Of a DNA stretch of 64,000 nt, positions 23,475-56,617 are shown piece after piece (the first letter of the stretch is position 1; every line of letters begins with the position of its first letter). The position numbers and the translations under genes are program-made. Origin of the DNA: an uncultured Burkholderiales bacterium (GTDB lineage: Bacteria > Pseudomonadota > Gammaproteobacteria > Burkholderiales > Burkholderiaceae_C); assembly GCA_945952065.1 (NCBI GenBank), contig CAMFGY010000030.1, forward strand, positions 1-64,000, read 5' to 3'. The notes beneath the pieces were generated by a model that saw nothing but the letters and a program-made list of their open reading frames with translations, did no database searches and had not been told where the DNA came from.

Positions 23475-23481
23475 GTCTAAC
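23475..23481 (-). repeat. attC core site (R') opening cassette 1
   Basis: On the minus strand GTTAGAC, followed by CGCAG and the ATG of the acetyltransferase. It is the exact inverted copy of the GTCTAAC that ends the cassette, and the match extends into the next bases (GTTAGACCGC). Just before it only a short right arm remains; the rest of that attC was replaced by the transposase remnant, whose reading frame ends at a TAG inside this core. Confidence 0.6.
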
Positions 23482-24070: not shown

Positions 24071-24289
24071 TGCTGCCAAAAGGTCTGCCGGCCTCATAGA
24101 GGCGCCTTGCGTGCTCCCCGCCAAAAGCCCAAGCGCCAAAAACAAAGAAAAAGAAAGTGAAATGCAACTGAGTAACCCTTCAACGCAAGGGCTGCTTGCG
24201 CCCTTGCGCCGGGGCCGGGGCCGGGCCGCGTGGCCGTGATGAAAAGAACACGACCACGCGAATCCCCGTCTGGCCTGCTTTCCTTCGTT
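24071..24289. other. Junction between IS remnant and sugar locus
   Basis: A short stretch with A-rich (AACAAAGAAAAAGAAAGTG) and G+C-rich runs, and no gene. It probably marks the recombination point that joined the IS remnant to the host chromosome. Confidence 0.35.
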
Positions 24290-24679
24290 TTACTCCGCCT
24301 TGAAGCCAAACGCCCGTTCGTGCACATAGACCAGCTTGCAGTCCTGGGTGTATTGGGCATCGTGGATGCGGCCGGCGCTGACGTAGCCGGTTTGCCCGGC
24401 GTTCAGGGTCACCGGCGGGCCGTCGGGGTGCAAGGCGCCGGCGGCATCGCGGGTGAAAAACTGGATGCGCATTTGGCCTTGCACCACCACCGTCATGTCA
24501 TGGCCGGGGTGGCTGTGCGGCGGCTCGCTGCTGCCGGCCTGCCAGCGCTCCAGCATCACCTCCACCCCGTCCGGGTTGGCGGGCACGCAGGTGCGCACGG
24601 TGAAGCCCGGCGGGGCGCCGGGCGCTTCGACATGGTGAGACCAGATGGCACTCTGGCTTTGCTCTTGCAATGTGCTCAT
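24290..24679 (-). CDS. Small cupin-fold protein
   Basis: A 129-aa single-domain cupin. The metal motif GSSEPPHSHPGHDMTVVVQG supplies two or three His and Glu-like ligands, and the second motif (AGRIHDAQYTQDCKLVYVHE) a further His. It starts 15 bases after the TonB receptor gene, so the two are co-transcribed. Small cupins of this kind may bind or isomerise sugars or act as sensors; the specific role is unknown. Confidence 0.75.
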   Translation of the reverse strand: MSTLQEQSQSAIWSHHVEAPGAPPGFTVRTCVPANPDGVEVMLERWQAGSSEPPHSHPGHDMTVVVQGQMRIQFFTRDAAGALHPDGPPVTLNAGQTGYVSAGRIHDAQYTQDCKLVYVHERAFGFKAE

Positions 24680-24694
24680 GAAAACTCCTGCTCC

Positions 24695-27358
24695 TCAAAA
24701 GGTGTAGGTCAGTGACAACTGGGCGTTACGTCCCAGGATCGGGCGGGCGTAGTAGTAGTCGCTGCCGCCAGGCGCCTGCACAAAGCCGGAGCGCGGGTTG
24801 CCTTCGGTCAGGCCGATGGTGTTGGTGATGTTTTGCACGCTGGCGTTCACATACATCTTGGGCGTGAGCTCATAGCGCAGGCTCAAGTCCCAGGTTTGAT
24901 AGGCCGGCAACTTGACCGAGTTGGACACATCGGCAAAGCGCATGCCCATGTAGTGGTAGCCCAGCGTCAACTCGCCCTTGTTGTCATTGAAGTAGACCGT
25001 GGGCGCGATCGTGTAGTTGACATCCGGGGTGCGCTCGGGGCGGTTGCCGTTCCAGCTGGTGGCTTCTTTGCGCAAGTCTTCCAGTTCCTGGCCCGAGCCG
25101 CGCAGCACGCGCAAGTCATTGACGCTGAAGCGCGAGCGCTGCACCACGCCCACCGCATTGAGCTGCAGCCAGTTCAAGGGCCGCCAGTTCAGCTCGAACT
25201 CCAGACCATTGGACTTCACGCCTTGCAGCATTTCCACCTGCGAGTTGCCCACCTCGGCGCCATTCGGGTCGCCCTGGAAATCGGCCTTGTAATAGGTGAA
25301 GGTGCCGGTGAAACCACGCGTTTGGTAGCGCAGGCCCACTTCGGCAAATTGGATGCGCGTCACCGGCAACTCGCCGCTGGTTTGGTAGCTCTTGGCATAG
25401 CGGCCATAGACGGCCATATTGTCGTTCAGCAGGTAGTTGCCGCCCACGGTCCAGGAAGGCTCGCGCCAGTCATTGCTGATGGCGGTGGTTTGGCCATTGG
25501 TGGGGTAGGCCCAGCGGTTGTTGGCGATGATGTTGTCCACATCGCAAGCGGCGTCGCCCAGCTTGTCCACATCGCAGCCGGGCTTGAAGGCGCCGGGGAT
25601 GGCGGTGTACTCGTCATAGCCGCTACGCTGCTCGCGGTATTTGTAGTGCTCCATGCGCACGCCGGCATCCAGGCGCAGGCGCTCGTTGACCTTGAACTCG
25701 TTGTTCAAGTAAACCGAGGTCGAGGTGTTGTGGAAGCTGGAGTTGCCATCGCCCCAGGTGGAGTATTCGCGCACCCCGTTCTCGGTGTAGGCGCCGACCA
25801 CCTTGCCCGCTGGGTCCAGGGCCACGATGTCCATGCGGCGCGCATGGTTGCGCACATCGGTCACAAAGCGCGCGGTGGCCGGGCTGCCGCTCTTGCTGAT
25901 GCGGGTATCAAAAGCCAAGAGGCCCAGGGTCAGGCTGTTGTTGGGCGTGTTCCAACTCACCGACAAATCATTCACCGCCTCGCGCTGCGCCTGCTTGTCG
26001 GCCTGCAGCACATTGTCAGACAGCAGGCCATTGCCATTGAGGGCATTCAGCTGCGCCGGGGTGGACAAAATCTCGCCGGTGGACACCACCCGCAGCGCCG
26101 GGGTGCATGCACCACCGCAGGCGCTGGCAAAGCGATCCAACATCTCTTGCACATAGCTGAACTTGCTGGGGTCGAGCCGGTTGACGGCCGGACGCAGGCT
26201 GTTGTTGCTGGAGGAGAAGACCACGCTGGCGGTCACATCACTGTCGGTGTAGCGGCCTTTGGAGCGCAGCGTCAGCTCTTGGCTCAGGGCTTTTTCGAAG
26301 CTGTAGCCGATGGCGCTGGCCTTGACGTGGTAGCCGTCGCGCGAGTCGTTGAGCTGGCTGAAGCTGCCCGGCACCAGCGAGGTGCGCACGTTTTGCACGC
26401 CTGAATCCAGGCCGATCATGGTGCCGTAATTGGCATTGATGCCGGGCAGGCTGCGCGGATTGTCTTTGCCCTGCACGGGAATCGGCAGGTAGAAGGTGTT
26501 GTGGTCATCCACCAGCTTGGCGTTGAGGCTCCATTCGCCGCCCTCGATCTTCTTGCCCACATGGGCGCGCAAGGTGCCGCCGAAGTTGGCGGTGAACTCG
26601 GGGTTGCGCACGCCGTCATCGCGGCGGTAAAAGCCCGAGGCCCCGGCAAACCAGCCATCGCCCAATCCGCCGGCATAGCGCAAGTCCACGCGGCGGGTGC
26701 CGTAGTCCGAGGTGCTGAGGCGCACCGCGCCTTCGGGCGCGCCCTTGTTGCGGTAGGTCAGGAAGTTGATGGTGGCGCCCGCGCCATTGGTGGTCAAAAT
26801 GGCCGAGGTGCCGCCGCGCACCGCTTCCAGCCGGTCAATGCCGATCTCTTGCTTGACCAGGCCATCGGCGGTCCAGCTCGGGTAGTAAAACACCGGCAGG
26901 CCGTCTTCTTGCAGCTGCACCCAGCGCTGGTTGCCGCCCGACATGCCGCGCACCGAGTAGTTGTTCGACATCTCGCCGCCCGAGGCTTCCACATACATGC
27001 CCGGAATCAGCTCCATGGCCTCGGCGGTGGAGCGCGGCGCCTTGCGGTCCAGCTCGTCACGATCCGCCACGGTGACCGCCACCGAGCTGTCGCGCAGCGT
27101 GCGGTTCAAGCCGGTGTTGCCGGTGACGACCACGCGATCGAGCTGGCTGGCTTCGTCTTTCTTGTCGGCCTTGGTGTCAGCCTTGCTGTCGGCTTTGCTT
27201 TCAGCCGCAGCCCCTTGCTGGGCCAGGGCCGGCGCCAAGCCCAGGCTGAGCAGGGCCGCCATGCAGATCGCGCTGGGCCGCAAGCGTGTGCTTGAAGCCA
27301 AGGGCAGGGATTGAGATTGGGCCCGTGCGAGCCTGCGGTTCTTTTGAATAGTCTCCAT
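24695..27358 (-). CDS. TonB-dependent outer-membrane receptor, likely for a sugar
   Basis: The 887-aa receptor has a long signal region (about residues 1-45 ending PALAQQ), a Lys/Asp/Ala-rich linker, a plug domain (LDRVVVTGNTGLNRTLRDS, then MELIPGMYVEASGG and LEAVRGGTSAILTTNGAGATI) and a 22-strand barrel ending in LSLTYTF. The ATG at 27358 is chosen because GGAG lies eight bases upstream; starts at 27364 or 27418 fit less well. Position behind the sugar operon suggests outer-membrane uptake of its substrate rather than of iron. A 189-base gap separates it from glk, so it may have its own promoter. Confidence 0.88.
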   Translation of the reverse strand: METIQKNRRLARAQSQSLPLASSTRLRPSAICMAALLSLGLAPALAQQGAAAESKADSKADTKADKKDEASQLDRVVVTGNTGLNRTLRDSSVAVTVADRDELDRKAPRSTAEAMELIPGMYVEASGGEMSNNYSVRGMSGGNQRWVQLQEDGLPVFYYPSWTADGLVKQEIGIDRLEAVRGGTSAILTTNGAGATINFLTYRNKGAPEGAVRLSTSDYGTRRVDLRYAGGLGDGWFAGASGFYRRDDGVRNPEFTANFGGTLRAHVGKKIEGGEWSLNAKLVDDHNTFYLPIPVQGKDNPRSLPGINANYGTMIGLDSGVQNVRTSLVPGSFSQLNDSRDGYHVKASAIGYSFEKALSQELTLRSKGRYTDSDVTASVVFSSSNNSLRPAVNRLDPSKFSYVQEMLDRFASACGGACTPALRVVSTGEILSTPAQLNALNGNGLLSDNVLQADKQAQREAVNDLSVSWNTPNNSLTLGLLAFDTRISKSGSPATARFVTDVRNHARRMDIVALDPAGKVVGAYTENGVREYSTWGDGNSSFHNTSTSVYLNNEFKVNERLRLDAGVRMEHYKYREQRSGYDEYTAIPGAFKPGCDVDKLGDAACDVDNIIANNRWAYPTNGQTTAISNDWREPSWTVGGNYLLNDNMAVYGRYAKSYQTSGELPVTRIQFAEVGLRYQTRGFTGTFTYYKADFQGDPNGAEVGNSQVEMLQGVKSNGLEFELNWRPLNWLQLNAVGVVQRSRFSVNDLRVLRGSGQELEDLRKEATSWNGNRPERTPDVNYTIAPTVYFNDNKGELTLGYHYMGMRFADVSNSVKLPAYQTWDLSLRYELTPKMYVNASVQNITNTIGLTEGNPRSGFVQAPGGSDYYYARPILGRNAQLSLTYTF

Positions 27359-27547
27359 CTTCATGTCTCCAGTGGTTTTGCTTTTGGCGAGGGAAAGAAA
27401 GAAAAGAAGGAACAACAAGGGACGAAAAACAGACGAAAGCAGCCCCCCAGCACGCTGCGAAAAATCGCCGCGCGATGCGGTTTTGCTTGCATGCTGAAAG
27501 TCGGTCGCGCCTCGCCCAGGCGCGCCGGAACTAGTGAGGCGGCGGCG
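27359..27547 (-). promoter_or_regulatory. Gap before the TonB receptor gene
   Basis: The 189-base spacer holds no gene. An imperfect dyad with GCGAAAAATCG on one side and CGATGCGGTTTTGC on the other lies around 27456-27485 and could be an operator, but the match is weak. No clear sigma-70 hexamers were identified. Confidence 0.25.
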
Positions 27548-28576
27548 TCATAGCGCTCGACTCGCACCCAGCAGAGCCGGTGGCTCCGGGCTGGCAATCA
27601 CATAACTGGGCACGGCGGCCAGATAGCCCGCCATGCGGCCCTTGGCTTCAAAGCGCGCCCGAAAGCGCGAAGCCCGAATCCACGCCGCCCCCAATCGCGG
27701 CACGATGCCGCCACCGATGAAGACCCCGGCCCGCGCACCCAGCGACAAGACCAGATCACCCGCCACGTCGCCGAGAAAGGCGCCAAACAAGTCCAGCGCC
27801 TCCACACATTGCCGCTGCGACTGATGCTGCGACTGACCTTGGGCAGATTCGATCAGCGCCGCTGGCGTGAGGCCCGCAGGCAAGGCGCAGCCGTCCAACT
27901 CGCACAAGGCCTGGGCCAGGTTCAAGAGCCCCGGCCCCGACAACACCCGCTCGGCCGACACATGCCCAAACCGCTTTGCCAACTGCTGCACCACGCGGTA
28001 TTCGCGCTCGCTGTGCGCCGCCAAGCTGACATGCCCGCCCTCGGTTTGCAGCGCGGTCCACTGCCGCTCGCCGCAAGACACCAAACCCGACACGCCCAAG
28101 CCCGTGCCCGGCCCCAGCAAGGCCAGGGTGCCCGCCTGAGCCACGGCGACCGGCGCTTGCGGCCCGCCGCAATGCCAAAAGTCCGCCTGCGGCAAGGCCG
28201 GTATCGCCAAGGCCAGGGCGGTGAAGTCATTCATCACCACCAGTCTTTGCAAGTCCAGCGCGCTGCGCAGCGCCTGGGCCGAGAAGCTCCAGTCGCGGTT
28301 GGTCAGGCTGATTTGGTCTTGCAAAACCGGCGTGGCCACACCCAAAGCCGCTTGACGGGGCCAGGCCAAGCCCTCATGGCGCAAGCCGCTGAGGTAATCC
28401 TGTATGCAAGCGGTGAGGTTGGGAAAGTCCGCGCAAGGCATCACCCGCACCCGCTCGATGCAAGCCCCTGCCCCGCCCTGCCAGGCCAGGCGCACATTGC
28501 TGCCGCCCACATCGCCCAGCAAGCGGGGGATGGCTGGAGCCTCGCCCTGGTGGGCTTTGCTGCCGATCTCAATCAT
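27548..28576 (-). CDS. glk: Glucokinase
   Basis: The 342-aa enzyme phosphorylates glucose with ATP. It has the proteobacterial Glk pattern: LLGDVGGSNVRLAW (phosphate-1), VMNDFTALALAIP, LLGPGTGLGVSGL and TEGGHVSLA. The ATG at 28576 overlaps the TGA of the Gfo/Idh gene, so the two are translationally coupled. Within this operon it would trap glucose freed from the imported glucoside and feed glycolysis or the Entner-Doudoroff route. Confidence 0.92.
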   Translation of the reverse strand: MIEIGSKAHQGEAPAIPRLLGDVGGSNVRLAWQGGAGACIERVRVMPCADFPNLTACIQDYLSGLRHEGLAWPRQAALGVATPVLQDQISLTNRDWSFSAQALRSALDLQRLVVMNDFTALALAIPALPQADFWHCGGPQAPVAVAQAGTLALLGPGTGLGVSGLVSCGERQWTALQTEGGHVSLAAHSEREYRVVQQLAKRFGHVSAERVLSGPGLLNLAQALCELDGCALPAGLTPAALIESAQGQSQHQSQRQCVEALDLFGAFLGDVAGDLVLSLGARAGVFIGGGIVPRLGAAWIRASRFRARFEAKGRMAGYLAAVPSYVIASPEPPALLGASRAL

Positions 28577-29745
28577 GCCCCGGCCTCCTGCTCCACCCGC
28601 GTCCAAATGCCGCCCGCCTGGGCGCTGCGCAGCGCCGCATCCACCAGGGCCAAACCGTCCAGCCCATCAGCCACCTGCGGCAGGCACTGGCTTTCGGGTG
28701 CGGGAGATCGCCCTTGCTGGCGCGCGCGGATGTGCTCGGCGGCCTCGCGATACAGCTGCGCAAACGCTTCCAAATAGCCCTCCGGGTGGCCGGGTGGCAA
28801 GCGGGTGGCGGCGCGTGCGGCGGCGCTGTCCAGCCGGCCGCGCGTCAGAATTTCGCTCTTGCCGCCTTGGTGGCTCAGGCGCAGCTGATTGGGCTGCTCC
28901 TGGTCAAACGCCAGGCCGGCCTTGCTGCCGTAAAGGCGCAGGCGCAAAGCGTTTTCGCAGCCGCTGGCCACCTGGCTGGCCCACAGCGCACCCCGCGCGC
29001 CACCGGCAAAGCGCAGCATCAGCTGGGCGTTGTCGTCCAAGCGCCGGCCCGGCACAAAGCTGCTCAGCTCTGCACACACCGAGGCCGCCCGCAAGCCGCT
29101 GACGAAGCTGGCCAGCTGATACGCATGCGTGCCGATATCGCCCAGCGCCCCGGCCGGCCCGGCCAGCGCGGGGTCGCAGCGCCATTGGGCCTGCTTTTGC
29201 CCCTGCTGCTCCAGCGGCTCGGCCAGCCAATCTTGCGCGTACTCCACTTGCACCAGGCGCAGGTCGCCCAAGACGCCGGCCCGTACCAACTCCCGCGCAT
29301 GGCGCACCGCCGGGTAGGCGCTGTAGTTGTAAGTCACGGCCAAGAGCCTTTGGCGCGTGCGCGCCAAGGCCGCCAACTCGCGCCCTTCGCGCAAAGAAAT
29401 CGCCAGCGGCTTGTCGCAGATTACATCGATGCCGCCCTGCAAAAAGGCCTGGGCCACCGGCGCATGCAAATGATTGGGCGTGACGATGGCCACGGCCTCG
29501 ATGCCATCGGGCCGGTCGGCCTCGCGCCGGGCCATCTCGCGCCAGTCGGCATAGCAGCGCTCCGCGCTCAGGCCGAGTGCCGCGCCGCTGGCCGCGCTGC
29601 GCTCCGGCGTGCTGGAGAAGGCGCCGGCCACCAGCTCAAAAGCCCCGTCCAGTCGGGCGGCGATGCGGTGCACCGCGCCGATGAAGGCGTCTTGCCCGCC
29701 GCCCACCATGCCCAGGCGCAAAGGGCGCTGATAGCTCGCACTCAT
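28573..29745 (-). CDS. Gfo/Idh/MocA sugar oxidoreductase (second copy)
   Basis: The 390-aa NAD(P)-dependent dehydrogenase has an N-terminal Rossmann fold (LGMVGGGQDAFIGAVHR), the family motif CDKPLAI with catalytic Lys near residue 123, and the C-terminal GDIGTHAYQLASF with the usual Asp and His. Members oxidise sugar hydroxyls, often at C3, or reduce the ketone. It overlaps both neighbours by four bases and pairs with the TIM-barrel epimerase upstream. Substrate inferred only from context. Confidence 0.9.
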   Translation of the reverse strand: MSASYQRPLRLGMVGGGQDAFIGAVHRIAARLDGAFELVAGAFSSTPERSAASGAALGLSAERCYADWREMARREADRPDGIEAVAIVTPNHLHAPVAQAFLQGGIDVICDKPLAISLREGRELAALARTRQRLLAVTYNYSAYPAVRHARELVRAGVLGDLRLVQVEYAQDWLAEPLEQQGQKQAQWRCDPALAGPAGALGDIGTHAYQLASFVSGLRAASVCAELSSFVPGRRLDDNAQLMLRFAGGARGALWASQVASGCENALRLRLYGSKAGLAFDQEQPNQLRLSHQGGKSEILTRGRLDSAAARAATRLPPGHPEGYLEAFAQLYREAAEHIRARQQGRSPAPESQCLPQVADGLDGLALVDAALRSAQAGGIWTRVEQEAGA

Positions 29746-30833
29746 GGCCGCCCTCCTTCACATGGGCCTTCGCTCCCGGCCAGGCCCAACCAGGCGCGCA
29801 GCTCGGTGCGCGGCGTGCCGCCGTCGGCGAAGTCATCAAAGGCCTTGTCGGCCACGCGGATCAAATGCCGCTGAATGAAGGCGGCACCCTCGCGCGCGCC
29901 GTCCTCCGGGTGCTTCAGGCAGCACTCCCACTCCAGCACCGCCCAGCCCGGGTAGCCGTAGCGGGTCAGCTTGGAGAAGATGGCGCCAAAGTCGATCTGC
30001 CCATCGCCCAGCGAGCGGAAGCGCCCGGCCCGGTCGGCCCAATCGGCATAGCCGCCATACACGCCTTGCCGGCCATTCGGGCGGAACTCCGCGTCTTTGA
30101 CATGGAAGGCGCGGATGCGGGCGTGGTAGAGGTCGATGAAAGTCAGATAGTCAAGTTGCTGCAGCAGGAAGTGACTGGGGTCGTAGAGGATGCAAGCGCG
30201 CGGGTGCTGCTGCACCGCGTCGAGAAAGCGCTCGAAGGTCACACCGTCGAACAAGTCTTCGCCCGGATGCAGCTCGTAGCAGACATCGACACCGGCCTCG
30301 TCAAAGGCGTGGAGGATGGGCGTCCAGCGCCGCCCCAGCTCGGCAAAAGCCTCGTCGACCAAACCGGCCGGGCGCGGCGGCCAGGGGTAGAGATAGGGCC
30401 AGGCCAAGGCCCCGGAAAAGGTCGCATGGGCTTTGAGGCCCAAGCGCGCCGAGGCCCGGGCCGCCAGCTTGAGCTGCTCGGCCGCCCAAGCCTGGCGGGC
30501 CTCGGACGAGCCGCGCACCGCCGCGGCGGCAAAGCCGTCAAAAGGCCGGTCATAAGCCGGGTGCACCGCCAGCAGCTGGCCTTGCAAATGGGTGGACAGC
30601 TCGCTGATCTGCAAGCCCAGCTCGGCCAGGCGGCCACGCAGATCGTCGCAGTAACTTTGACTCTCAGCGGCGAGTGCCAGGTCAAACAAGCGGGCGTCCC
30701 AGCTGGGGATTTGCAGCGCCTTGAAGCCCAGACCGGCGGCCCAGCGGGCGATGTTGTCCAGGCTGTTGAAGGGCGCGTGGTCGCCCGCGAACTGGGCCAG
30801 AAAGAGGCCGGGGCCTTGCAAGGTTTTCATCAT
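29742..30833 (-). CDS. Sugar epimerase/isomerase-like TIM barrel (second copy)
   Basis: The 363-aa protein belongs to the AP-endonuclease-2/xylose-isomerase-like superfamily. Metal ligands are visible: Glu in ELHPGED, Asp/His in YDPSHF, His in FHVKDAEF and Glu in LEWECCLK. Such proteins act beside Gfo/Idh enzymes as 3-keto-sugar epimerases or lyases. The start is one of two adjacent ATGs (30833, 30830), giving MMKTLQGPGLFLAQ. It follows the LacI gene by 20 bases and overlaps the next gene. Confidence 0.88.
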   Translation of the reverse strand: MMKTLQGPGLFLAQFAGDHAPFNSLDNIARWAAGLGFKALQIPSWDARLFDLALAAESQSYCDDLRGRLAELGLQISELSTHLQGQLLAVHPAYDRPFDGFAAAAVRGSSEARQAWAAEQLKLAARASARLGLKAHATFSGALAWPYLYPWPPRPAGLVDEAFAELGRRWTPILHAFDEAGVDVCYELHPGEDLFDGVTFERFLDAVQQHPRACILYDPSHFLLQQLDYLTFIDLYHARIRAFHVKDAEFRPNGRQGVYGGYADWADRAGRFRSLGDGQIDFGAIFSKLTRYGYPGWAVLEWECCLKHPEDGAREGAAFIQRHLIRVADKAFDDFADGGTPRTELRAWLGLAGSEGPCEGGRP

Positions 30834-30853
30834 GGTTGGCTGTTCTTCATTGA

Positions 30854-31921
30854 TCAAAGCTGCGGGGCGTGATCGCTTTGGCGCTCGATCAACTCGGCGC
30901 GCTCCAAGAGCTGCAAGCGCTCGGGCGCTTCGCCGTCCAGCCGACGCAGCAAGAGGCTGCCGAGCTGGCGCCCGGCGTGGTGCAGCGAGGCAAAGTAGGT
31001 GCTGATGGGCGGCACAAAGTAGGCGCTGATATTGCTGTCGTCGGTGGCCACCACCACGGCCTCGCGGCCGGCCTGCCAACCCAGCTCCGCAAAGGCCGAC
31101 AAAGCCCCCAGGGCGGTGAATTCATTGGCGCAGACAAAGGCCGTAGGGCGCTCGGCACCTTGGGCTAAGTCCAGCACGATGCGCCGCCCATCGCCCGCCG
31201 AGAGGCCCGAGCTGCGCAAGAGTTCGGCCTCATAGGGCAAGCCCGCCTCGGCCAGCGCGCGCCGGTAGCCCTGCTCGCGGTGCTGGGCATACATCAGCTC
31301 GGGGCTGGGGTTGAGCATGGCAATGCGGCGGTGGCCGCGCGCCAGCAGGCGGCGCGTCGCTTGGTAGGCCATGTCTTCATGGTCGGTGTCGTAGCTGGGA
31401 TGCGGCTGCGCCAGCTCGCTGCGGCCATAGCTGACAAAGGGAAAGTCTTGCGCCAGCAGGTATTGAATGCGCTCGTCCTGCGGGCGGGTTTGGGTCAGGA
31501 TCAGGCCGTCCACCCGGCGCGATTCGACCAGGCTGCGCAAGCCTTCCAGCGGGTCCACGCCGGGCAGCTGCGGATGCACCACCAGGCTGTAATAACTGCC
31601 CGCCAATGCGGCATACAGGCCCGACACCAGCGCCATATAGCCGCTGTCGCTGAAGTCCTGCTGCGCGTCTTCCACCGGCAAGACGATGCACAGGGTGTAG
31701 GTCTTGCCGGTGCGCAGCTTCACCCCAGCCAGGTTGACGCTGTAGCCCAGCTCGGCGGCGGCGCGTTTGACACGCTCGCGGGTCTCGGGCTTGACCTCGG
31801 GCGCATCCTTCAATGCCCGCGACACCGTGCCCAGCGACAAGCCGGTGTGCCGCACCAGGGTCTTCAAGGTGACATTGGGGTTGGCGCCGGCCGCTGCCGG
31901 GCTGTCCAGTTCATTCGACAT
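30854..31921 (-). CDS. LacI-family transcriptional regulator
   Basis: The 355-aa repressor has an N-terminal helix-turn-helix and hinge (VTLKTLVRHTGLSLGTVSRAL, then ELGYSVNLAGVKLRTGK) and a periplasmic-binding-like sensor domain from about residue 72. The ATG at 31921 has AGGAG seven bases upstream and overlaps the end of the glycoside hydrolase gene by 11 bases. Its place inside the sugar operon implies local control and autoregulation, most likely through the palindrome at 42044-42067. Confidence 0.9.
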   Translation of the reverse strand: MSNELDSPAAAGANPNVTLKTLVRHTGLSLGTVSRALKDAPEVKPETRERVKRAAAELGYSVNLAGVKLRTGKTYTLCIVLPVEDAQQDFSDSGYMALVSGLYAALAGSYYSLVVHPQLPGVDPLEGLRSLVESRRVDGLILTQTRPQDERIQYLLAQDFPFVSYGRSELAQPHPSYDTDHEDMAYQATRRLLARGHRRIAMLNPSPELMYAQHREQGYRRALAEAGLPYEAELLRSSGLSAGDGRRIVLDLAQGAERPTAFVCANEFTALGALSAFAELGWQAGREAVVVATDDSNISAYFVPPISTYFASLHHAGRQLGSLLLRRLDGEAPERLQLLERAELIERQSDHAPQL

Positions 31922-33656: not shown

Positions 33657-33661
33657 GCAAA

Positions 33662-34498
33662 TCAACCTTTGACGGCGGCGCTGGTGGCGCCATCCATGAT
33701 GTGGCGCTGGGCCAGGAAGAACAGGATCAAAGGCGCCAGACACAAGAGCACCGTCATGGCGGCAATGGCGCTCACATTGTTTGAATGCAGGCCCTTGAAC
33801 TGGGCCAGGCCCAGCGGCAAGGTGTACTGGCTTTGGTCGTTCAAAAAGATCAGCGGGCCCAGGTAGTCGTTCCAGCTGCCCAGGAACTGAAAGGTGCCCA
33901 CCAGCACCAGGGCCGGCGCCATCAAGGGCAAATGGATGCGCCAGTAGATTTGCCAGGCATTGGCGCCGTCCATGCGCGCGGCCTCGTCCAACTCGCGCGG
34001 AATGCTCATGATGAACTGGCGCAGCAAGAAGATGAAAAACGGCGCCGCAAAGAAGTTGGGCACGATCAGCGGCTTGAGCGTGTTGATCCAGCCCAGGGCG
34101 TTGAACTCCATATAGAGCGGGATCATGGTCACGTCCCAGGGAATCATCATCGAGCCCAGCACCACCATGAAGAGCACATTGCGGCCCCGGAAATCAAAGC
34201 GCGCAAAGCCATAGGCCACCAGGCTGGAGGAGAAAATTTGCCCCACGGTGGAGAGCAGCGCCACCCAGACCGAGTTGCGCAGGAACAGCGCAAAGGGCTG
34301 GGCCTGCCAGGCCTCGAGGAAATTGCGCCAATGCGGCTCGGCCGGCCACCAGACCGGCGGCCAGGCATAGAGCTCGCTCTTGGCCTTGAGCGCGGTCAGC
34401 AGCGTCCAGTACAGCGGCGCGGCAAAGGCAAAACACAGCACCAGCATCAGGCTGTAAAACGCCAGACGGCGGCTGCGGGTCTGCAGGCTGCTGTTCAT
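33662..34498 (-). CDS. ABC sugar permease, MalG type
   Basis: The 278-aa inner-membrane permease of a CUT1 importer has six helices and the EAA loop RELDEAARMDGANAWQIYWR near residue 170, which docks the ATPase. It starts MNSSLQTRSRRLAFYSLML and its ATG overlaps the stop of the MalF-type gene by four bases. It forms the channel with that partner. Confidence 0.92.
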   Translation of the reverse strand: MNSSLQTRSRRLAFYSLMLVLCFAFAAPLYWTLLTALKAKSELYAWPPVWWPAEPHWRNFLEAWQAQPFALFLRNSVWVALLSTVGQIFSSSLVAYGFARFDFRGRNVLFMVVLGSMMIPWDVTMIPLYMEFNALGWINTLKPLIVPNFFAAPFFIFLLRQFIMSIPRELDEAARMDGANAWQIYWRIHLPLMAPALVLVGTFQFLGSWNDYLGPLIFLNDQSQYTLPLGLAQFKGLHSNNVSAIAAMTVLLCLAPLILFFLAQRHIMDGATSAAVKG

Positions 34499-35517
34499 GC
34501 GCGGCCCCCCTTCTTGGCCGCTTGGCCCTCGGCCTTCACCTCGTTCTCATAAAACACCCAGAGGCTGGAGAAGCGCATCACCGAGGCCGAGAGCAGCAAG
34601 ATCAGCGCAAACATCAGCCAAGACATGGCCGAGGCATAGCCCATGTCGAAGTACTTGAAGGCGGTGTCGTAGATGTACATGGCCAACATATAGGTGGACT
34701 TCATCGGCCCGCCGCCGGTCAGCAGCAGAGCCAGGGTCAGCTGCTGAAACGCCGCGATCAAGGTGGTGACCAGGTTGAACAACAAGACCGGCGACAGCAG
34801 CGGCAGCGTGATGTGGGTGAACTGCTGCAGCTTGGAAACGCCGCTCATCTCGGCCGCCTCATACAGCTCCACCGAGATGCCTTTGAGCCCGGCCAAGAAC
34901 ACCAGCATGGTGCCGCCCAAGCTCCACAAGCTGGCGATCACCACCGCGCTCATGGCCCAGTCCGGGCTGCCCAGCCAGTCCACCGCCGGCAGGCCCACGA
35001 GCGAGAGCAAATAGTTCAAAAGCCCATACTCGCGGCTGTAAATCCAGGACCAAATGCTGACCAGGGCCACGCCGGACAGCATGGAGGGCAGATAAAACAC
35101 GGTGCGAAAAAAGCCCTCGCCCCGGCAGCGCCGGTTCAAGAGCAAAGCCAGGCCCAAAGCCCCGGCCAGATGGGTGGGCACATAGAGCAGCGCGAAGCGC
35201 GCGGTCACGCCCAGGGCCTCCCAGAAGTCCTCGTCCTGGCTCAAGATGCGCTGGTAGTTCTGCAGCCCGACAAAGCGCTCGCCGCCCATCAAAGGCCAAT
35301 CGAAGAAACTGATGTAAAGCGAGTAAAGCAGCGGCCCGACGGTGAAGGCCACAAAGCCCAGAACCCAGGGCGCAATGAAGAGATAGGGCAAGACCTGGCC
35401 CCAAGCGCGCGAGCGCGACAGGCGCCGAGGGGTCGGCCGCTGCTCCGGCCTCGCGGCCTCGGCCTTGAGCGGCATCAGCATCTCGCTTTGAGCATCCATG
35501 TGTTGAGACTTGTGCAT
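34495..35517 (-). CDS. ABC sugar permease, MalF type
   Basis: The 340-aa permease has a cytoplasmic N-tail, six predicted helices (first LPYLFIAPWVLGFVAFTVG) and the coupling loop ELYEAAEMSGVSKLQQFTHI. It follows the solute-binding protein by 31 bases. Two in-frame ATGs (35517 and 35499) are possible starts; the first is used. Confidence 0.92.
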   Translation of the reverse strand: MHKSQHMDAQSEMLMPLKAEAARPEQRPTPRRLSRSRAWGQVLPYLFIAPWVLGFVAFTVGPLLYSLYISFFDWPLMGGERFVGLQNYQRILSQDEDFWEALGVTARFALLYVPTHLAGALGLALLLNRRCRGEGFFRTVFYLPSMLSGVALVSIWSWIYSREYGLLNYLLSLVGLPAVDWLGSPDWAMSAVVIASLWSLGGTMLVFLAGLKGISVELYEAAEMSGVSKLQQFTHITLPLLSPVLLFNLVTTLIAAFQQLTLALLLTGGGPMKSTYMLAMYIYDTAFKYFDMGYASAMSWLMFALILLLSASVMRFSSLWVFYENEVKAEGQAAKKGGRA

Positions 35518-35548
35518 GGCCTGGGTCCTGAAAAGCGCCTTGCAGGCA

Positions 35549-36879
35549 TCAGCGCAAGCGCCGCTCGGCCTTCAAGGCGGCGCGGTCCAGAATGGCCCCG
35601 CTGTCGCCTTGCGGGCTGAGAAAAACTTCTTGGATGGCGTCGCGCACCACATCCTGGGCGCGCATCCAACGCGGGTTGAGCAAATGCGCCGGGCTTTCTT
35701 TCATGCTCTCGGCCATGGCGTAAAACGGCCGCACCTGCGGGTCTTGGGCCAAGCCTTGTTCAGCCGCCACGCTGAGCAAGACCGGCAGATCGTTGCCCCG
35801 CATGCGCACCGCCTCGGCGCTGCTGAAGAATTGGATGAAATCCCAGGCCAGCTCTTTTTGCCGGCTGTGCTTGGCCATGGCCAGGGCCGACACGCTGAGC
35901 ACGCTTTGCGGCGGCCGCCCTTGAAAGCTCGGCAGTCCGACCACGCCAAAGCGCTTGCGGTCCTGCGCCAACTCCAGGCGGAAGGCACTGCCGTCCAACA
36001 ACATGGCCACCTTGTCGGAGACAAACATCTGGCGCTGATTGCGCCCATCGCCCACGCCCAAAGCAGCCACCACATCGCTGCGCAGCAGGCCTTGCAGATA
36101 GGCAAACAAGGCCTTGCTCTCGGGGCTGTTCAGATGACCTTGCACGCTGTGCCCATCCGGCCCCAGCATGCGGCCGCCCGCGCTCCAGAGATAGCTCTGG
36201 AAGTCATAGGGGTCGGGATTCACATCGAGGCCAAAGCCGTAGGCCTTGGCCGCCGGATTGCGCAGGCGCTGCGCCATCTGGCGCAAATCATCCCAGCTCC
36301 AGCCCTCTTGCGGATAGGCGAGCCCGGCACGGTCCAGCATGTCTTTGTTGTAGTAGATGACCTGGGCGGTGAAGCCGGCCGGCACGCCGTAGATGCGGGC
36401 CTCGCCCTGCGGCTGCCCGGCATCGCGAACCGTGGAGAAGCGCCACAGCCCCGGCACAAAGTCGCGTGGCTTGATGCGCGCATCGCGGGCCAGGTAGGCA
36501 TCGAGCGGCTCCAAGACCCGCTGGTACTGCGGAAAGTTCCACATATACATCACGTCCGGCGGATGGCCCGCGCCAAAGGCCGCGGAGAGCTTTTGGTTGT
36601 AGCCGCCGCCATAGGCCTCCACCTGCACCTTGACGCCCGGATGGCGCGCCTCAAAGGCGGCGGCAATGCGCTGCTGGATCAAGAGGCTTTCGCTGCCGTC
36701 CCAGGTGGCAAAGCGCAGCACGCGCGGGGTGGACGCGTCGGCATTGCCCGGCCCCTCAGCCTGCCCTTCAGCCTGAGCATTGGCCGCCGCGCTGGCCCGC
36801 CAGACGCCCGCGCCCAGCAAGCTCAGGCCCAGGCCGGCCAAGAGGCCACGTCTCAGAACTTGTGCGCGCATCGGCGGCT

Positions 36880-36883
<4 letters not shown>
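35549..36883 (-). CDS. ABC sugar solute-binding protein (CUT1)
   Basis: The 444-aa protein has an RRGLLAGLGLSLLGAGVWRASA signal sequence with two arginines, then a family-1 extracellular binding fold (LRFATWDGSESLLIQQRIAA, FGAGHPPDVMYMWNFPQY, YGVPAGFTAQVIYYNKDML). It captures the sugar in the periplasm. Its start overlaps the stop of the ATPase gene by four bases, so importer subunits are made in one coupled block. Confidence 0.92.
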
Positions 36884-38016
<1,133 letters not shown>

Positions 38017-38044
38017 GGTGAGGTGGGGCTCCGGTTCGCTGGGT

Positions 38045-38836
38045 TCAGTTCAACAACAGGGTCTGCAAATAGGCTTGACCGGCGGCCGCCGTGCGGGCCG
38101 GCTCGCTGGGCTGGTCGTGCTCGACGATGAAGGTGTCGAGCCGCTGGCGCAGCCAGGGCAGCCAGGCCGGCCAGTCCAGCCGCCCCTCGCCCAGCGTGGC
38201 CCAGCCCTGCTCGGCCTCAGCCAGCGCGGCGCCGGGCCTGGCCAGGTCTTTCACATGCACCGACTGCAAGCGCTCGGCATAGCGCTGCAGCCAGCGCATC
38301 GGCAGCTCCCCGGCCCGCGCCACCCAGGCCACATCGGGCTGCCAACGCAAAGCCGGCGCGGCGTCCAACACGGTCTCCAACACGCTGCGTCCATCGTCAG
38401 CAAGCCGCTCAAATTCAAAGGCATGGTTGTGATAGGCCAGCGTGATGCCCTGCGCCTGCAGGCTCAGCGCATGGGCTTGCAAGCGCGCGGCCAGCGCCAG
38501 CCAGCCGGCCCGATCGCTGGGCCGCTCGGCCTCGTCCAGCCAGGGCATGACCAGTTGACGGCAGCCGCAGCCCTGCAAGGCGGCGACCACTTCATCCAGG
38601 CGCTCGCCCAGATCACTCATCTCCACATGCATGGAGGCCAGGCCCAGGCCCGCATCGCGCAGGGTGGCGACGAAGGCTTCAGCACTCAGCCCATGCAGCG
38701 CCTCGCTCTCCACCCAAGGGAAGCCCGCCTGACGCGCCACTTGCAAACGCGCGGCCAAGTCACCGGCACTGCGCACTGTGTAGAGCTGCAAGGCGATGCG
38801 CGGCGCGCAAGCCTGGGCATTGCTGTGGGGACTCAT
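38045..38836 (-). CDS. Sugar epimerase/isomerase-like TIM barrel (first copy)
   Basis: The 263-aa protein is a compact member of the xylose-isomerase-like superfamily. Probable metal ligands are Glu in YHNHAFEFER, Asp in WQPDVAW, His in VHVKDLA and a late Glu (FIVEHDQ). It overlaps the upstream Gfo/Idh gene by four bases, repeating the oxidoreductase-epimerase pairing seen again at 28573-30833. The two epimerase copies are clearly different in length (263 vs 363 aa), so they probably have different reactions. Confidence 0.87.
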   Translation of the reverse strand: MSPHSNAQACAPRIALQLYTVRSAGDLAARLQVARQAGFPWVESEALHGLSAEAFVATLRDAGLGLASMHVEMSDLGERLDEVVAALQGCGCRQLVMPWLDEAERPSDRAGWLALAARLQAHALSLQAQGITLAYHNHAFEFERLADDGRSVLETVLDAAPALRWQPDVAWVARAGELPMRWLQRYAERLQSVHVKDLARPGAALAEAEQGWATLGEGRLDWPAWLPWLRQRLDTFIVEHDQPSEPARTAAAGQAYLQTLLLN

Positions 38837-39999
38837 GCGCGCTGCTCCTGCTTGGGGCTGCTCTTGAATTGCAGGGCTTCGGCAAAGCCCGGGTTGACGG
38901 GGTCAGGTCTTGCGCAGCGGGTGCGCAGCGAGACCGGCGCGTTTTTCTCAGCGGCGCGCAGCACGGCGTCCATGGCTTCCAACACATGCAGAGCCATCTC
39001 ACCATTGGCACGGTGCTGGCGGCCGCTGCGCAGGGCCTCGGCCATATCGGCCACACCCAGGCCGCGATGCCGGCCGGTGAAGCTTTGCGGCGCATGCGCC
39101 TGCCAATCGCCATCGGCCTCGCAGCTTTCCAACACGCCGCCGAACTGGTTCGGGTCGGGCAGGACCAAGCTGCCGCGCTCGCCATACAGCTCCAGATGGC
39201 TGCTCTTGTGCTTCCACACATCAAAGCTGGTGCTCAGGGTGATGAAAGCGCCTTGCTCAAACTCCAGGCCGGCGACCAGATGGGTGGGGGTCTCGACCTG
39301 GATGCTCTCGCCCTGGCGCGGACCACGCGGAATCTGCCGGATCGGCCAGCTGGTGTGGGCCATGCCTTTGACCCGGGTGATGGGACCCAGCAATTGCACC
39401 AGCTGGGTCAGGTAGTACACGCCCATGTCCATCAAGGGGCCGGCGCCGGGGCGGTAGAAAAAGCCCGGGTTGGGGTGCCAGTCATCCGGGCCGCGCTCCA
39501 TCATGGTGGCCTGGCCGGCCACGATGCGGCCGAGCTGCCCAGCGTCCACCAGGCTGCGCGCCAGCTGACCGGCGCCGCCCAAGAAAGTGTCGGGCGCACA
39601 GCCAATGCGCAGGCCCAGGGCGGTGGCCAGTTCCATCAGTTCAGCGCCATCGGCAAAGCTGCCGGCCAGGGGCTTCTCGGTGTAGAGATGCTTGCCGGCT
39701 TTGAGCACCGCCTCGCCCACTGCGCGGTGGGCTTGCGGAGGGGTCAGGTTGATGACGATTTGCGCCTCTCCCGCGAGCAGCTCATCCACACTCAGCGCCG
39801 GCAGGCCCAGGGCCTGCGCTTGGGCGGCCGCCGCCTCGGGGCGCGCATCGGCCACGCCCACCAATCGCAGCGTGCCAAACTGCGCCAGGCCGGCCGCATA
39901 GGCCGGGAAGATGTCGCCCGCGCCGATGATGGCCACTGGCGTGGCCATGCCGGGCTGCGTTGGCGTCTCGGGCTTGAGTTGGAGTTCGTTCATCTTCAT
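38833..39999 (-). CDS. Gfo/Idh/MocA sugar oxidoreductase (first copy)
   Basis: The 388-aa enzyme has the Rossmann start PVAIIGAGDIFPAYAAGLA, the EKP motif (YTEKPLAGSF) with the catalytic Lys and PLMDMGVYYLTQL, where the second active-site residue is Tyr rather than His. It is a candidate 3-dehydrogenase for the imported glycoside. The ATG at 39999 overlaps the fusion gene's TGA; upstream frame extension to 40380 lies inside that gene and is not real. Confidence 0.88.
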   Translation of the reverse strand: MKMNELQLKPETPTQPGMATPVAIIGAGDIFPAYAAGLAQFGTLRLVGVADARPEAAAAQAQALGLPALSVDELLAGEAQIVINLTPPQAHRAVGEAVLKAGKHLYTEKPLAGSFADGAELMELATALGLRIGCAPDTFLGGAGQLARSLVDAGQLGRIVAGQATMMERGPDDWHPNPGFFYRPGAGPLMDMGVYYLTQLVQLLGPITRVKGMAHTSWPIRQIPRGPRQGESIQVETPTHLVAGLEFEQGAFITLSTSFDVWKHKSSHLELYGERGSLVLPDPNQFGGVLESCEADGDWQAHAPQSFTGRHRGLGVADMAEALRSGRQHRANGEMALHVLEAMDAVLRAAEKNAPVSLRTRCARPDPVNPGFAEALQFKSSPKQEQRA

Positions 40000-42038
40000 G
40001 CGGGTGACCCTTGTTCGGCCAGATCCAGCCAGGCCATTTCTTCGGCACTCAAGCGCACGGTCAGCCCGCGCATGGAGCTGGCGGTTTCGGCAATCGAGCG
40101 CGGCCCAATCAGGCTGAAGGCCGGGAAGCGCTGGCCCAGCACCCAGGCCAGGGCGATATTGATGGCATGCACGCCCTTCTCCGCCGCGAGCTTTTGCGCC
40201 CGTGCGCGGCGCTCGAAATTGGCGGGGCTGTACCAGCAGCGCACCAGCTCCTCGTCCTCGCGCAGGTCCGGGCCGGCCCGGTCGGTGAAGAAGCCGCGCG
40301 CCTGCGAGGACCAGGCAAACAGCGCCATGCCCTGCTCGGCCAGCCACTGGCGCGAGGCCGGGTCGCCCGCCGAGACACAACCGCGCCAGATCGGTGCCTG
40401 CATGCGCGCCAGGCTGAGCTGGTTGTTGAGCAAAGAAAAGCCTTGCAAGCCCTTGGCCGCCGCATAAGCGTTGGCGGCCTGCACCCGCTCAATTGACCAG
40501 TTAGAGCCCCCAAAAGCCTGGAAGCGGCCCAGCCGGCCTTGCTCATTCAAGGCCTCAACGAACTCGCCCACCGGCACCTCGGGGTTGTCGCGATGCAGGA
40601 TGTAGAGATCGGCGTGGTCGGTCTGCAAACGCTCCAGGCTCTCGGCCAGCTCGCGGCGCATGCCCTCGGGCGTGCAATGGGGCGTGTGGGCGCCTTTGGC
40701 GATCAGCACGATCTCGTCACGAATGCCGCGCGCCCGCAACCATTGGCCCAGGATGGCCTCGCTGTGGCCGCCTTCGAAGTCATAGACCCAGGCGGTGTCA
40801 AAGGTGTTGCCGCCGCGCTCGATGTAGTCGTCAAACAGGGCCGCGGCATGCGGCAGGGTCTCTTGGTTGTCCACGCCCATGATCAGGCGCGAGACCTGCT
40901 TGCCCTGCAGGCCCGGCACCTGGCCATAAGTCATCAGCGCATCGGTGCGGCGCGCAATCGGCAGGCCTGCCAATGTGTTGCGGCCTTGCAGGGCGGCCTC
41001 GGCTTCCTTGGGATAGCTCAGGCCGATGGCGCGGCGCCAGCGGTCCATCACCGCCAAGGTGCCCAAGGAGTCGGCAGGGCTCATGGCCGGATGCGGCACC
41101 GCGCCGGCCTGCACCGCTTGGGCAAAGACATCGGCCTCATAGGCGTACAGGCCGCGATCGGTGGGGATGGTCCAGGTCTGCGCCAGGGCCTCGTCCACAT
41201 AGAGCTCGATGCGGCTCTCGCCGGCCTCGGCCCCGGCGCCATACCATGGCTTGGAGACCACCAGCGCGCCCTTGCTGCCGCCAATGCGCAGCGATTCTTC
41301 CTGCTCGAAACGCACCGCGGTGCTGAGCTGCGCCACGATGTCCCCCGGGAAGCGCAAGGTGGCCGTGGCCCATTCATCCACCGGGCCGCTGGCGCTTGGG
41401 TAGAGCTGGCCCATGGCCTGCAGCTCGATCGGTTCAGCAAAGGGCAAGTTGCGCGCCACACCGGCGATCAGCCGCGCCATCGACACCGGGTAGCAGCCCA
41501 CATCCAGAATGCCGCCACCCGCCAGCGCGGCCTCCCAGGTGCGCGAGCCCGCACGCGGCGTGGAGCTGTAGCAAAAAGACGCCTGGATGTGCCGAACATC
41601 GCCAATCGTGCCGGCGCGCAGCAGCTCCAGCAGCTTGGCCGTTTGCGGCAGGCAGCGGTACATAAAGGCTTCCATCAGCACGCGGCCGGCGCGCTCGGCC
41701 TCGTCAAAAGCGATCATGGCCTCGGCATGGTTCAGCCCCAGCGGCTTTTCGCACAGCACATGCTTGCCGGCCCGCAGGGCCTGCACCGTCCAGTGCAGAT
41801 GCTCGGTGTGCGGCAGGCCGATATAGACCGCCTGCACCGACGCATCAGCCAACAAAGCCGCGTAAGAGCCATAGGCTTTGGCCGGGCAAGCGGCCTGGCC
41901 ATATTGATCGGCAAAGGCCTGCGCCTTGGCCGCGTCACGGCTGGCCACCGCCACCAAAGCGCCACTGTCGGTCTGCTTTAGACCCGCTGCGAAAGCGCCC
42001 GAGATGTTCCCGGCGCCGATGATTCCCCAGTTCAGCAT
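39996..42038 (-). CDS. Gfo/Idh oxidoreductase fused to an aldo/keto reductase
   Basis: One 680-aa chain holds two oxidoreductases. Residues 1-345 are Gfo/Idh/MocA (GIIGAGNISGAFAAGLK, CEKPLGLNHAEA, GGGILDVGCYPVSMARL). After a linker (about 345-375) residues 375-680 are an aldo/keto reductase with the tetrad Asp-Tyr-Lys-His visible in GNTFDTAWVYDFEGGHSE, LIAKGAH and LYILHRDNP. Both active sites look intact. It is the first gene of the operon, with the palindromic operator immediately upstream. The pairing suggests one half oxidises and the other reduces the same sugar, recycling the cofactor. Confidence 0.88.
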   Translation of the reverse strand: MLNWGIIGAGNISGAFAAGLKQTDSGALVAVASRDAAKAQAFADQYGQAACPAKAYGSYAALLADASVQAVYIGLPHTEHLHWTVQALRAGKHVLCEKPLGLNHAEAMIAFDEAERAGRVLMEAFMYRCLPQTAKLLELLRAGTIGDVRHIQASFCYSSTPRAGSRTWEAALAGGGILDVGCYPVSMARLIAGVARNLPFAEPIELQAMGQLYPSASGPVDEWATATLRFPGDIVAQLSTAVRFEQEESLRIGGSKGALVVSKPWYGAGAEAGESRIELYVDEALAQTWTIPTDRGLYAYEADVFAQAVQAGAVPHPAMSPADSLGTLAVMDRWRRAIGLSYPKEAEAALQGRNTLAGLPIARRTDALMTYGQVPGLQGKQVSRLIMGVDNQETLPHAAALFDDYIERGGNTFDTAWVYDFEGGHSEAILGQWLRARGIRDEIVLIAKGAHTPHCTPEGMRRELAESLERLQTDHADLYILHRDNPEVPVGEFVEALNEQGRLGRFQAFGGSNWSIERVQAANAYAAAKGLQGFSLLNNQLSLARMQAPIWRGCVSAGDPASRQWLAEQGMALFAWSSQARGFFTDRAGPDLREDEELVRCWYSPANFERRARAQKLAAEKGVHAINIALAWVLGQRFPAFSLIGPRSIAETASSMRGLTVRLSAEEMAWLDLAEQGSPA

Positions 42039-42043
42039 GATGT

Positions 42044-42067
42044 GTAAATTGAAACGTTATGATTTAC
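42044..42067 (-). promoter_or_regulatory. Predicted LacI-type operator
   Basis: A 24-bp dyad GTAAAT-3-AACGTT-3-ATTTAC, with the central CG of LacI-family operators, sits five bases before the start codon of the first operon gene. Upstream on the minus strand A+T-rich AAATATATTT (about 42078-42088) can serve as the -10 region. A half-similar site (CATAACGTTTC) lies inside the hydrolase gene near 33323-33333 and may be a second contact or chance. Confidence 0.65.
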
Positions 42068-42957: not shown

Positions 42958-43004
42958 GTGTCTTGTCTCCTTTTGTTTGTTTGTTCTGAGGCCGCAGCCG
43001 AGGG

Positions 43005-44132: not shown

Positions 44133-44133
44133 C

Positions 44134-55134: not shown

Positions 55135-55255
55135 GGGCGAGGATGGCGACGGCTTCTCGGACTGGAACGCCTCGCAGTATCGCCCCAACAAGACCAATTC
55201 AAGACCAAATCAGCCGAGCTTTCGCTGCTCACATTGGCCGATGCCGCCCTGGCAC

Positions 55256-56539: not shown

Positions 56540-56617
56540 CGATCGCCAAAAATCTGAGGGTCCGCGCAGGCCGCAAGTATCGCCCGGACGCGGCCCGGAC
56601 GATTTATCAGAATGCAT

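What the first reader, a model, noticed from the sequence alone, without database searches (positions are those of the whole stretch)
24290..42067. Complete glucoside uptake and 3-keto-sugar breakdown operon
Thirteen consecutive minus-strand genes (27548-42038), most with overlapping start/stop codons, join a CUT1 importer, two different Gfo/Idh oxidoreductases plus a Gfo-AKR fusion, two xylose-isomerase-like epimerases, an MGH1-like hydrolase, a LacI regulator and glucokinase; a TonB receptor and cupin follow. The oxidoreductase-epimerase pairing recalls the E. coli ycj system (glucoside 3-dehydrogenases with a 3-keto-sugar epimerase), but here a hydrolase replaces the phosphorylases and an outer-membrane receptor is added. 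The substrate is not known from sequence.
Basis: partly seen in the sequence, partly recalled or inferred. Interest (0 to 1): 0.7.

Follow-up and report, generated by a model that had tools for sequence, protein, structure and literature searches.

The report
Oxidative glucoside breakdown operon
This bacterium carries a gene set that seems to import glucosides and split them inside the cell by first oxidising the sugar, a known kind of chemistry run here with a different first enzyme and apparently in a different cell compartment, beside a puzzling set of glycine-enzyme genes inherited with it.

Summary
The operon is real: 12 (not 13) same-strand genes, 42038-27548, then a TonB receptor and a cupin. 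All 14 recur in the same order in 8 of 9 same-family relatives read; the ninth lacks two.

The ycj comparison fails: YcjR and YcjQ match nothing here, and YcjS lies outside all three Gfo clades. The two 'epimerases' match the Agrobacterium beta-eliminase AtOGE (8BVK) and a 2-hydroxy-3-keto-glucal hydratase (8RO4); one Gfo matches their partner reductase. Best reading: import, C3 oxidation, elimination, hydration, reduction to glucose, phosphorylation.

It differs from Agrobacterium in that a Gfo enzyme (GfoB) replaces the flavin (GMC) dehydrogenase. Eliminases beside GMC genes carry an export signal (17 of 18); those beside GfoB do not (0 of 16), and the latter form two separate clades.

Four upstream genes (gcvPA, gcvPB, NAD-kinase-like, SDR) belong to the conserved block: gcvPB orthologues occur in exactly the 6 of 250 family genomes that have the operon marker.

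No activity was tested. Substrate and the roles of Gfo-AKR, the GH63-like hydrolase and the Gcv genes remain unknown.

The parts
45786..47183 (-). gcvPA, split glycine dehydrogenase subunit 1
   Evidence: NCBIfam NF001696, 463 bits, over cut-off 364; upstream of the operon in 8 of 8 relatives read that far
44134..45789 (-). gcvPB, split glycine dehydrogenase subunit 2
   Evidence: NCBIfam NF003346, 578 bits, over cut-off 441; co-occurs with the operon marker in 6 of 250 family genomes
43005..44171 (-). NAD-kinase-like protein
   Evidence: Pfam NAD_kinase, 50 bits; conserved in 8 of 8
42160..42957 (-). SDR oxidoreductase
   Evidence: Pfam adh_short_C2; found in 10 of 10 relatives upstream of GfoAKR
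42049..42059 (-). Probable LacI-family operator, TAACGTTTCAA
   Evidence: Only match in the window, 0.02 expected; AACGTTTCAA upstream of GfoAKR in 10 of 10 relatives
39996..42038 (-). GfoAKR: Gfo/Idh domain fused to an aldo/keto reductase domain
   Evidence: Pfam; clade of its own
38833..39999 (-). GfoB: proposed NAD-linked glucoside C3-dehydrogenase
   Evidence: Pfam; beside OGE where GMC is absent; one clade, 100/99
38045..38836 (-). OGE: proposed 3-keto-O-glucoside beta-eliminase, no export signal
   Evidence: 8BVK (AtOGE), E=3e-45; histidines aligned with His134 and His189 kept in 19 of 19 rows; start seen
36880..38016 (-). CUT1 importer ATPase
   Evidence: Pfam ABC_tran and TOBE_2
35549..36883 (-). 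Solute-binding protein (SBP)
   Evidence: Pfam SBP_bac_1; weak matches to solved sugar-binding proteins
34495..35517 (-). Permease F
   Evidence: Pfam BPD_transp_1
33662..34498 (-). Permease G
   Evidence: Pfam BPD_transp_1
31911..33656 (-). GH63-like (MGH1-like) hydrolase, probably cytoplasmic
   Evidence: Pfam PF22422, E=1.8e-49; GWDN and EN motifs kept in 13 of 13 readable rows of 14
30854..31921 (-). LacI-family regulator
   Evidence: Pfam
29742..30830 (-). HYD: proposed 2-hydroxy-3-keto-glucal hydratase
   Evidence: 8RO4, E=3.6e-175
28573..29745 (-). GfoC: proposed 3-keto-glucose reductase
   Evidence: Same clade as the Gfo next to HYD in Agrobacterium locus L016; match in 69 of 80 HYD loci
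27548..28576 (-). Glucokinase (Glk)
   Evidence: Pfam Glucokinase E=1.3e-92; TIGR00749 over cut-off
24695..27364 (-). TonB-dependent receptor
   Evidence: Pfam Plug and beta-barrel; in 9 of 9 same-family relatives read
24290..24679 (-). Cupin
   Evidence: Pfam Cupin_2; in 9 of 9 same-family relatives read

Best explanation
A LacI-controlled operon imports a glucoside and splits it in the cytoplasm by oxidation, elimination, hydration and reduction. The TonB receptor and CUT1 importer bring the intact glucoside in. GfoB oxidises C3 with NAD+. OGE, a metal-dependent TIM barrel, removes the aglycone by beta-elimination, leaving 2-hydroxy-3-keto-glucal. HYD hydrates this to 3-keto-glucose. GfoC reduces that to glucose with the reducing power gained in the first step, and the operon's glucokinase makes glucose 6-phosphate. 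The GH63-like hydrolase probably cuts a related or longer glycoside by plain hydrolysis; the role of GfoAKR is open. Shown here: gene content, homology, motifs, synteny, tree positions and crude signal-peptide calls. Inferred: every activity, the cofactor, the compartment and the substrate.
For: OGE matches 8BVK (E=3e-45), which PMC10628242 gives as AtOGE, an Mn2+ beta-eliminase of 3-keto-glucosides (passages); the histidines aligned with AtOGE His134 and His189 are kept in 19 of 19 rows. HYD matches 8RO4, deposited as 2-hydroxy-3-keto-glucal hydratase (E=3.6e-175). GfoC is in one clade with the Gfo next to HYD and OGE in Agrobacterium locus L016; the paper turned 3-keto-phlorizin into glucose with the Gfo, AtOGE, AtHYD and NADH. 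Among 80 HYD loci 22 hold OGE: 16 with GMC, 4 with GfoB, 2 with neither, none with both. GfoB is one clade (100/99) although its OGE partners fall in two. OGE has an export signal in 17 of 18 copies beside GMC and 0 of 16 beside GfoB. Glucokinase fits glucose as end product.
Against: No activity was measured. GfoB has no close solved relative (best E about 1e-14) and matches no curated 3-dehydrogenase model over cut-off. AtOGE does not cleave alpha-linked 3'-keto-maltose, while the hydrolase beside it is of a family known mostly for alpha-linkages (recalled). L109 keeps GfoB and OGE but has lost HYD and GfoC, though a distant HYD-like gene (36-37%) with a GfoC-like and a GMC-like gene lies elsewhere in that genome. 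One GMC locus, L063, has an OGE without an export signal. The signal call is a hydropathy rule, not a trained predictor. GfoAKR does not fit the scheme.
Confidence: 0.68

Rival explanations
1. A ycj-type system: oxidoreductases and an epimerase invert a rare-sugar glycoside to a glucoside, which a hydrolase then cuts.
For: Same broad make-up: CUT1 importer, Gfo enzyme, TIM barrel, LacI, outer-membrane protein. YcjN, YcjO and YcjP match the importer proteins, YcjS the Gfo proteins weakly. GfoAKR, with two oxidoreductase domains, could be such an inverting enzyme.
Against: YcjR and YcjQ, the epimerase and second dehydrogenase, have no BLAST match here; YcjR sits on a very long branch outside OGE; YcjS lies outside the three Gfo clades; both TIM barrels have much closer relatives of other function.
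Confidence: 0.07
2. Two functions share one operon: the importer, GH63-like hydrolase and LacI handle one glycoside by hydrolysis, and the oxidative enzymes handle another.
For: Sinorhizobium meliloti pSymB has ATP-SBP-PermF-PermG-GH63-LacI counterparts without OGE, HYD or Gfo matches in the 20 kb read; Phaeobacter has the oxidative set with its own importer.
Against: The joint set keeps its order in 8 of 9 same-family relatives and stays together, rearranged, in G013; one probable operator lies in front of it.
Confidence: 0.2
3. GfoAKR, not GfoB, makes the 3-keto-glucoside, and GfoB does another step.
For: GfoAKR is the first gene; its Gfo half resembles KijD10, deposited as a sugar 3-ketoreductase (E=1.3e-29).
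Against: GfoB sits beside OGE and HYD in 4 of 80 HYD loci and in Phaeobacter without GfoAKR matches; in five rhizobial-type stretches GfoAKR has no OGE or HYD match nearby.
Confidence: 0.2
4. An inositol-glycoside or inositol pathway.
For: Gfo and TIM-barrel families shared with IolG and IolE, weak NCBIfam matches.
Against: IolG 44-89 bits against 355 and IolE 34-62 bits against 290.
Confidence: 0.03

Closest known systems
Agrobacterium tumefaciens GlycDH-OGE-HYD-Gfo operon (PMC10628242; 8BVK)
   Same: Eliminase, hydratase and Gfo reductase relatives; HYD 69%, GfoC 53%, OGE 37% identical in the Agrobacterium locus L016.
   Different: There a flavin (GMC) dehydrogenase with a TAT-pathway partner and an OGE with an export signal; here GfoB and an OGE without one. 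The window also has a CUT1 importer in the operon, GfoAKR, GH63-like hydrolase, glucokinase, TonB receptor and cupin. No GMC close to that enzyme was found among three GMC places of the window's genome: only one matched, at 26% over 53%.
Bacillus smithii levoglucosan (lgdA-B1-B2-C) cluster (PMC7676230)
   Same: NAD-linked Gfo dehydrogenase, two TIM-barrel enzymes, Gfo reductase to glucose, with LacI and a sugar ABC importer nearby (passages).
   Different: None of the three Gfo proteins reaches the levoglucosan dehydrogenase cut-off (45-126 bits against 650). Direct comparison with LgdB1, LgdB2 and LgdC was not made.
Phaeobacter inhibens plasmid pPGA1_78 cluster (L122)
   Same: Importer-OGE-GfoB, with LacI-HYD-GfoC divergent; OGE without export signal.
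   Different: Its OGE lies in the other GfoB-linked clade; no GfoAKR, GH63-like, glucokinase, TonB or gcv match in the stretch (for the first four; gcv). No test of its function was found or sought.
E. coli ycj cluster
   Same: CUT1 importer, Gfo enzyme, TIM barrel, LacI, outer-membrane protein.
   Different: YcjR, YcjQ and the phosphorylases YcjM and YcjT have no match here; YcjS outside the three clades.

Membership tests
Oxidation-elimination-hydration-reduction pathway (Agrobacterium type) | AtOGE-type beta-eliminase with its metal-site and catalytic histidines | tested here: met
   8BVK E=3e-45; both histidines kept in 19 of 19 rows. By sequence only.
Oxidation-elimination-hydration-reduction pathway (Agrobacterium type) | 2-hydroxy-3-keto-glucal hydratase | tested here: met
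   8RO4 E=3.6e-175 over residues 2-351. By sequence only.
Oxidation-elimination-hydration-reduction pathway (Agrobacterium type) | Gfo 3-keto-glucose reductase beside the hydratase | tested here: met
   GfoC overlaps HYD by 4 bases and is in the clade of L016 GfoC
Oxidation-elimination-hydration-reduction pathway (Agrobacterium type) | GMC flavin glucoside dehydrogenase and TAT partner | tested here: not met
   None in the operon; three GMC places in the genome, none close. GfoB is proposed to stand in.
Oxidation-elimination-hydration-reduction pathway (Agrobacterium type) | Measured conversion of a glucoside to glucose via 3-keto intermediates | not testable with these tools
   Needs enzymes in hand
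E. coli ycj system | YcjR-type 4-epimerase and YcjQ-type dehydrogenase | tested here: not met
   No BLAST match at 1e-4
E. coli ycj system | YcjS-type 3-dehydrogenase | tested here: not met
   28-30% to all three Gfo proteins; outside their clades, long branch
Inositol catabolism (IolG, IolE) | Scores over the curated NCBIfam cut-offs | tested here: not met
   44-89 bits against 355; 34 and 62 bits against 290
Levoglucosan dehydrogenase | Score over cut-off 650 | tested here: not met
   126, 61 and 45 bits
Glucosylglycerate hydrolase (GH63) | Score over cut-off 550 | tested here: not met
   48 bits; it does pass the broader MGH1-like Pfam model, 170 bits against 27

The most novel reading that the evidence does not exclude
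The functional unit is the whole 18-gene block 24290-47183: the glucoside carries an amino-acid-like or amino-alcohol aglycone, which the split GcvP pair, the NAD-kinase-like protein and the SDR break down after the oxidative sugar pathway has released it, so that one inherited set handles both halves of an unknown conjugate.
Probability: 0.12. Interest if true: 0.75.

Novelty: new variant of a known kind. Interest (0 to 1): 0.5.

Why it matters
If right, oxidative cleavage of glucosides exists in two forms that can be told apart from sequence: a flavin form whose first steps lie outside the cytoplasm, and an NAD-linked form inside it, coupled to import and redox-neutral, with the GfoB pairing falling in two separate eliminase clades. 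That would let annotators replace 'sugar phosphate isomerase/epimerase' and 'Gfo/Idh/MocA oxidoreductase' in such operons with testable steps. The co-inherited gcv genes may be a clue to the unknown substrate.

Tried and rejected
Tested and rejected: ycj homology, inositol, levoglucosan and glucosylglycerate-hydrolase assignments. The substrate could not be fixed: the SBP has only weak relatives among solved structures, and paper searches with S. meliloti locus names guessed from memory gave nothing on the cassette (passages concern another importer). A second copy of the operator before TonB was looked for and not found in the window. The generic promoter scan gave 2 sites against 2.2 in shuffles and the terminator scan 21 against 16.0, sd 4.4. 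Base composition shows no clear foreign stretch. A paper search on the GcvP and NAD-kinase pairing gave a listing with nothing that links them.

Limits: structure prediction was not obtained (for the GH63-like protein, 96 for GfoB: queue full; GfoAKR was not submitted). The GH63 acid and base residues are recalled; one search shows only that the motifs are kept, with 1 of 14 rows (L119) unreadable. In one search the window row was read in the wrong frame; its start is taken. In one search a comparison with L016 gave no output (identities are), and a lysine-motif check searched the wrong letters; neither is used. The DNA read beyond the cupin in relatives is short, so lack of conservation on that side is little tested.
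Full report
WHAT IS THERE. Fourteen genes on the minus strand run from 42038 to 24290: GfoAKR, GfoB, OGE, importer ATPase, SBP, permease F, permease G, GH63-like hydrolase, LacI, HYD, GfoC, glucokinase, TonB receptor, cupin (the short names are mine). The tight run to glucokinase has 12 genes, not 13. Seven of its 11 junctions overlap and the rest have gaps of 5 to 31 bases; TonB follows after 183 bases.

CONSERVATION. The GH63-like gene, used as a marker, was found in 2 of 300 genomes drawn from the order, 6 of 250 from the family and 5 of 18 from the genus; each count includes the window's own genome. Of nine same-family relatives read, eight hold all 14 genes in the same order (L107, L108, L110, L111; L134-L137) and L109 lacks HYD and GfoC. 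In G013, of another family, GfoAKR to LacI are present with HYD moved between ATPase and SBP and GfoC turned round; glucokinase, TonB and cupin had no match in the 36 kb searched. The set is patchy among species but holds together.

THE ENZYMES. OGE matches 8BVK over residues 14-259, E=3e-45. PMC10628242 (passages seen) gives 8BVK as AtOGE, an Mn2+-dependent eliminase of 3-keto-O-glucosides; changing His189 abolished nearly all activity, and the enzyme cleaves 3'-keto-cellobiose but not 3'-keto-maltose. The aligned His134 and His189 are kept in 19 of 19 rows. HYD matches 8RO4, deposited as 2-hydroxy-3-keto-glucal hydratase, E=3.6e-175 (the source organism was not shown). In the Agrobacterium locus L016 the order is HYD, GfoC, OGE, GMC, GMC partner, and its HYD and OGE read, by eye, nearly like 8RO4 and 8BVK. 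The paper brought 3-keto-phlorizin to glucose with the Gfo reductase, AtOGE, AtHYD and NADH, and calls the hydratase evidence preliminary. A related NAD-linked route is published for levoglucosan (PMC7676230, passages). Two further papers on such pathways, in Nature and Angewandte Chemie (2024), are recalled; they are not held and were not read.

THE FIRST STEP. Among 80 HYD loci (the best of at least 594 places), 69 hold a GfoC match and 22 an OGE. Of these 22, 16 hold a GMC dehydrogenase (13 with its partner), 4 hold GfoB, 2 hold neither and none holds both; one further locus, L079, has GMC without OGE. GfoB is one clade (100/99), apart from GfoA and GfoC. Its rows show an Asp after strand beta-2, which by general knowledge of Rossmann folds favours NAD, the Lys of the EKP motif, and a Tyr where most GfoC rows have His. 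No curated 3-dehydrogenase model is passed by any of the three Gfo proteins.

THE COMPARTMENT. By a simple hydropathy rule, OGE copies carry an N-terminal signal in 17 of 18 cases in GMC loci (exception L063), 0 of 16 in GfoB loci and 2 of 2 with neither (the window row was misread there and is judged, where OGE starts a few residues before its first conserved motif). In the OGE tree the GfoB-linked rows form two clades: one with the window, sister to the signal-bearing Agrobacterium and Xanthomonas-type rows (97/92), and one with Phaeobacter, Marinomonas, Pelagibacterium and L003; supported branches force two changes. So the pairing with GfoB, and the lack of a signal, changed at least twice on this tree, in one direction or the other. 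I infer that the window's pathway is wholly cytoplasmic, fed by the importer, and redox-neutral.

REGULATION. AACGTTTCAA lies upstream of GfoAKR in the window and in 10 of 10 relatives; the window and the nine of its family also have AATATATT before it. WAACGTTTCAA occurs once in the window, at 42049-42059, with 0.02 expected. It resembles LacI-family operators as I recall them, and LacI is in the operon.

WHERE THE PARTS COME FROM. Importer, GH63-like gene and LacI have counterparts in the same order in S. meliloti pSymB at 41-66% identity. GfoAKR occurs in 12 of 398 genomes across the phylum and in 195 plasmid records, 189 of them Rhizobium or Sinorhizobium. In five stretches (L113, L115-L117, L120) it sits beside importer genes with no OGE or HYD match; in L114 no importer matched. 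The operon joins cassettes that also live apart.

THE UPSTREAM GENES. gcvPA, gcvPB, a NAD-kinase-like gene and an SDR precede the operon on the same strand. The SDR was found in 10 of 10 relatives and all four genes in 8 of 8 relatives read that far, where the window genes tested from beyond gcvPA had no match. In the family, gcvPB orthologues of 86% or more occur in exactly the 6 of 250 genomes with the operon marker; two others have 47-49% relatives. The genome also has a one-chain GcvP. NAD-kinase-like, gcvPA and gcvPB occur together without the sugar genes on plasmids of Rhodococcus, Sphingomonas and Gemmobacter, and none of the 80 HYD loci has them. Physical linkage alone could explain the co-occurrence; a shared substrate is the bolder reading.

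VERDICT. It is a new variant of a known pathway, with a testable compartment rule and an unexplained co-inherited gene set.

Noticed in passing
window 42160-47183: Split GcvP pair, NAD-kinase-like gene and SDR directly upstream, co-inherited with the operon although the genome has a normal GcvP elsewhere.
   Followed up: partly
window 23480-24145: Piece of an IS1182-type transposase (70 bits against a cut-off of 270) just beyond the cupin end of the block.
   Followed up: no
L109 and L138 (G405): This relative has lost HYD and GfoC from the operon; a distant HYD-like gene with a GfoC-like and a GMC-like gene lies elsewhere in its genome.
   Followed up: partly
L120, L113, L115-L117: Gfo-AKR fusions next to a CUT1 importer without eliminase or hydratase, common on rhizobial plasmids; function unknown.
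   Followed up: partly
L119 (S. meliloti pSymB): Importer, 'amylo-alpha-1,6-glucosidase' and LacI cassette related to the window's, near exoP and with a beta-galactosidase gene just behind.
   Followed up: partly
window 53923-56695: Two neighbouring HD-domain proteins with DUF3391.
   Followed up: no
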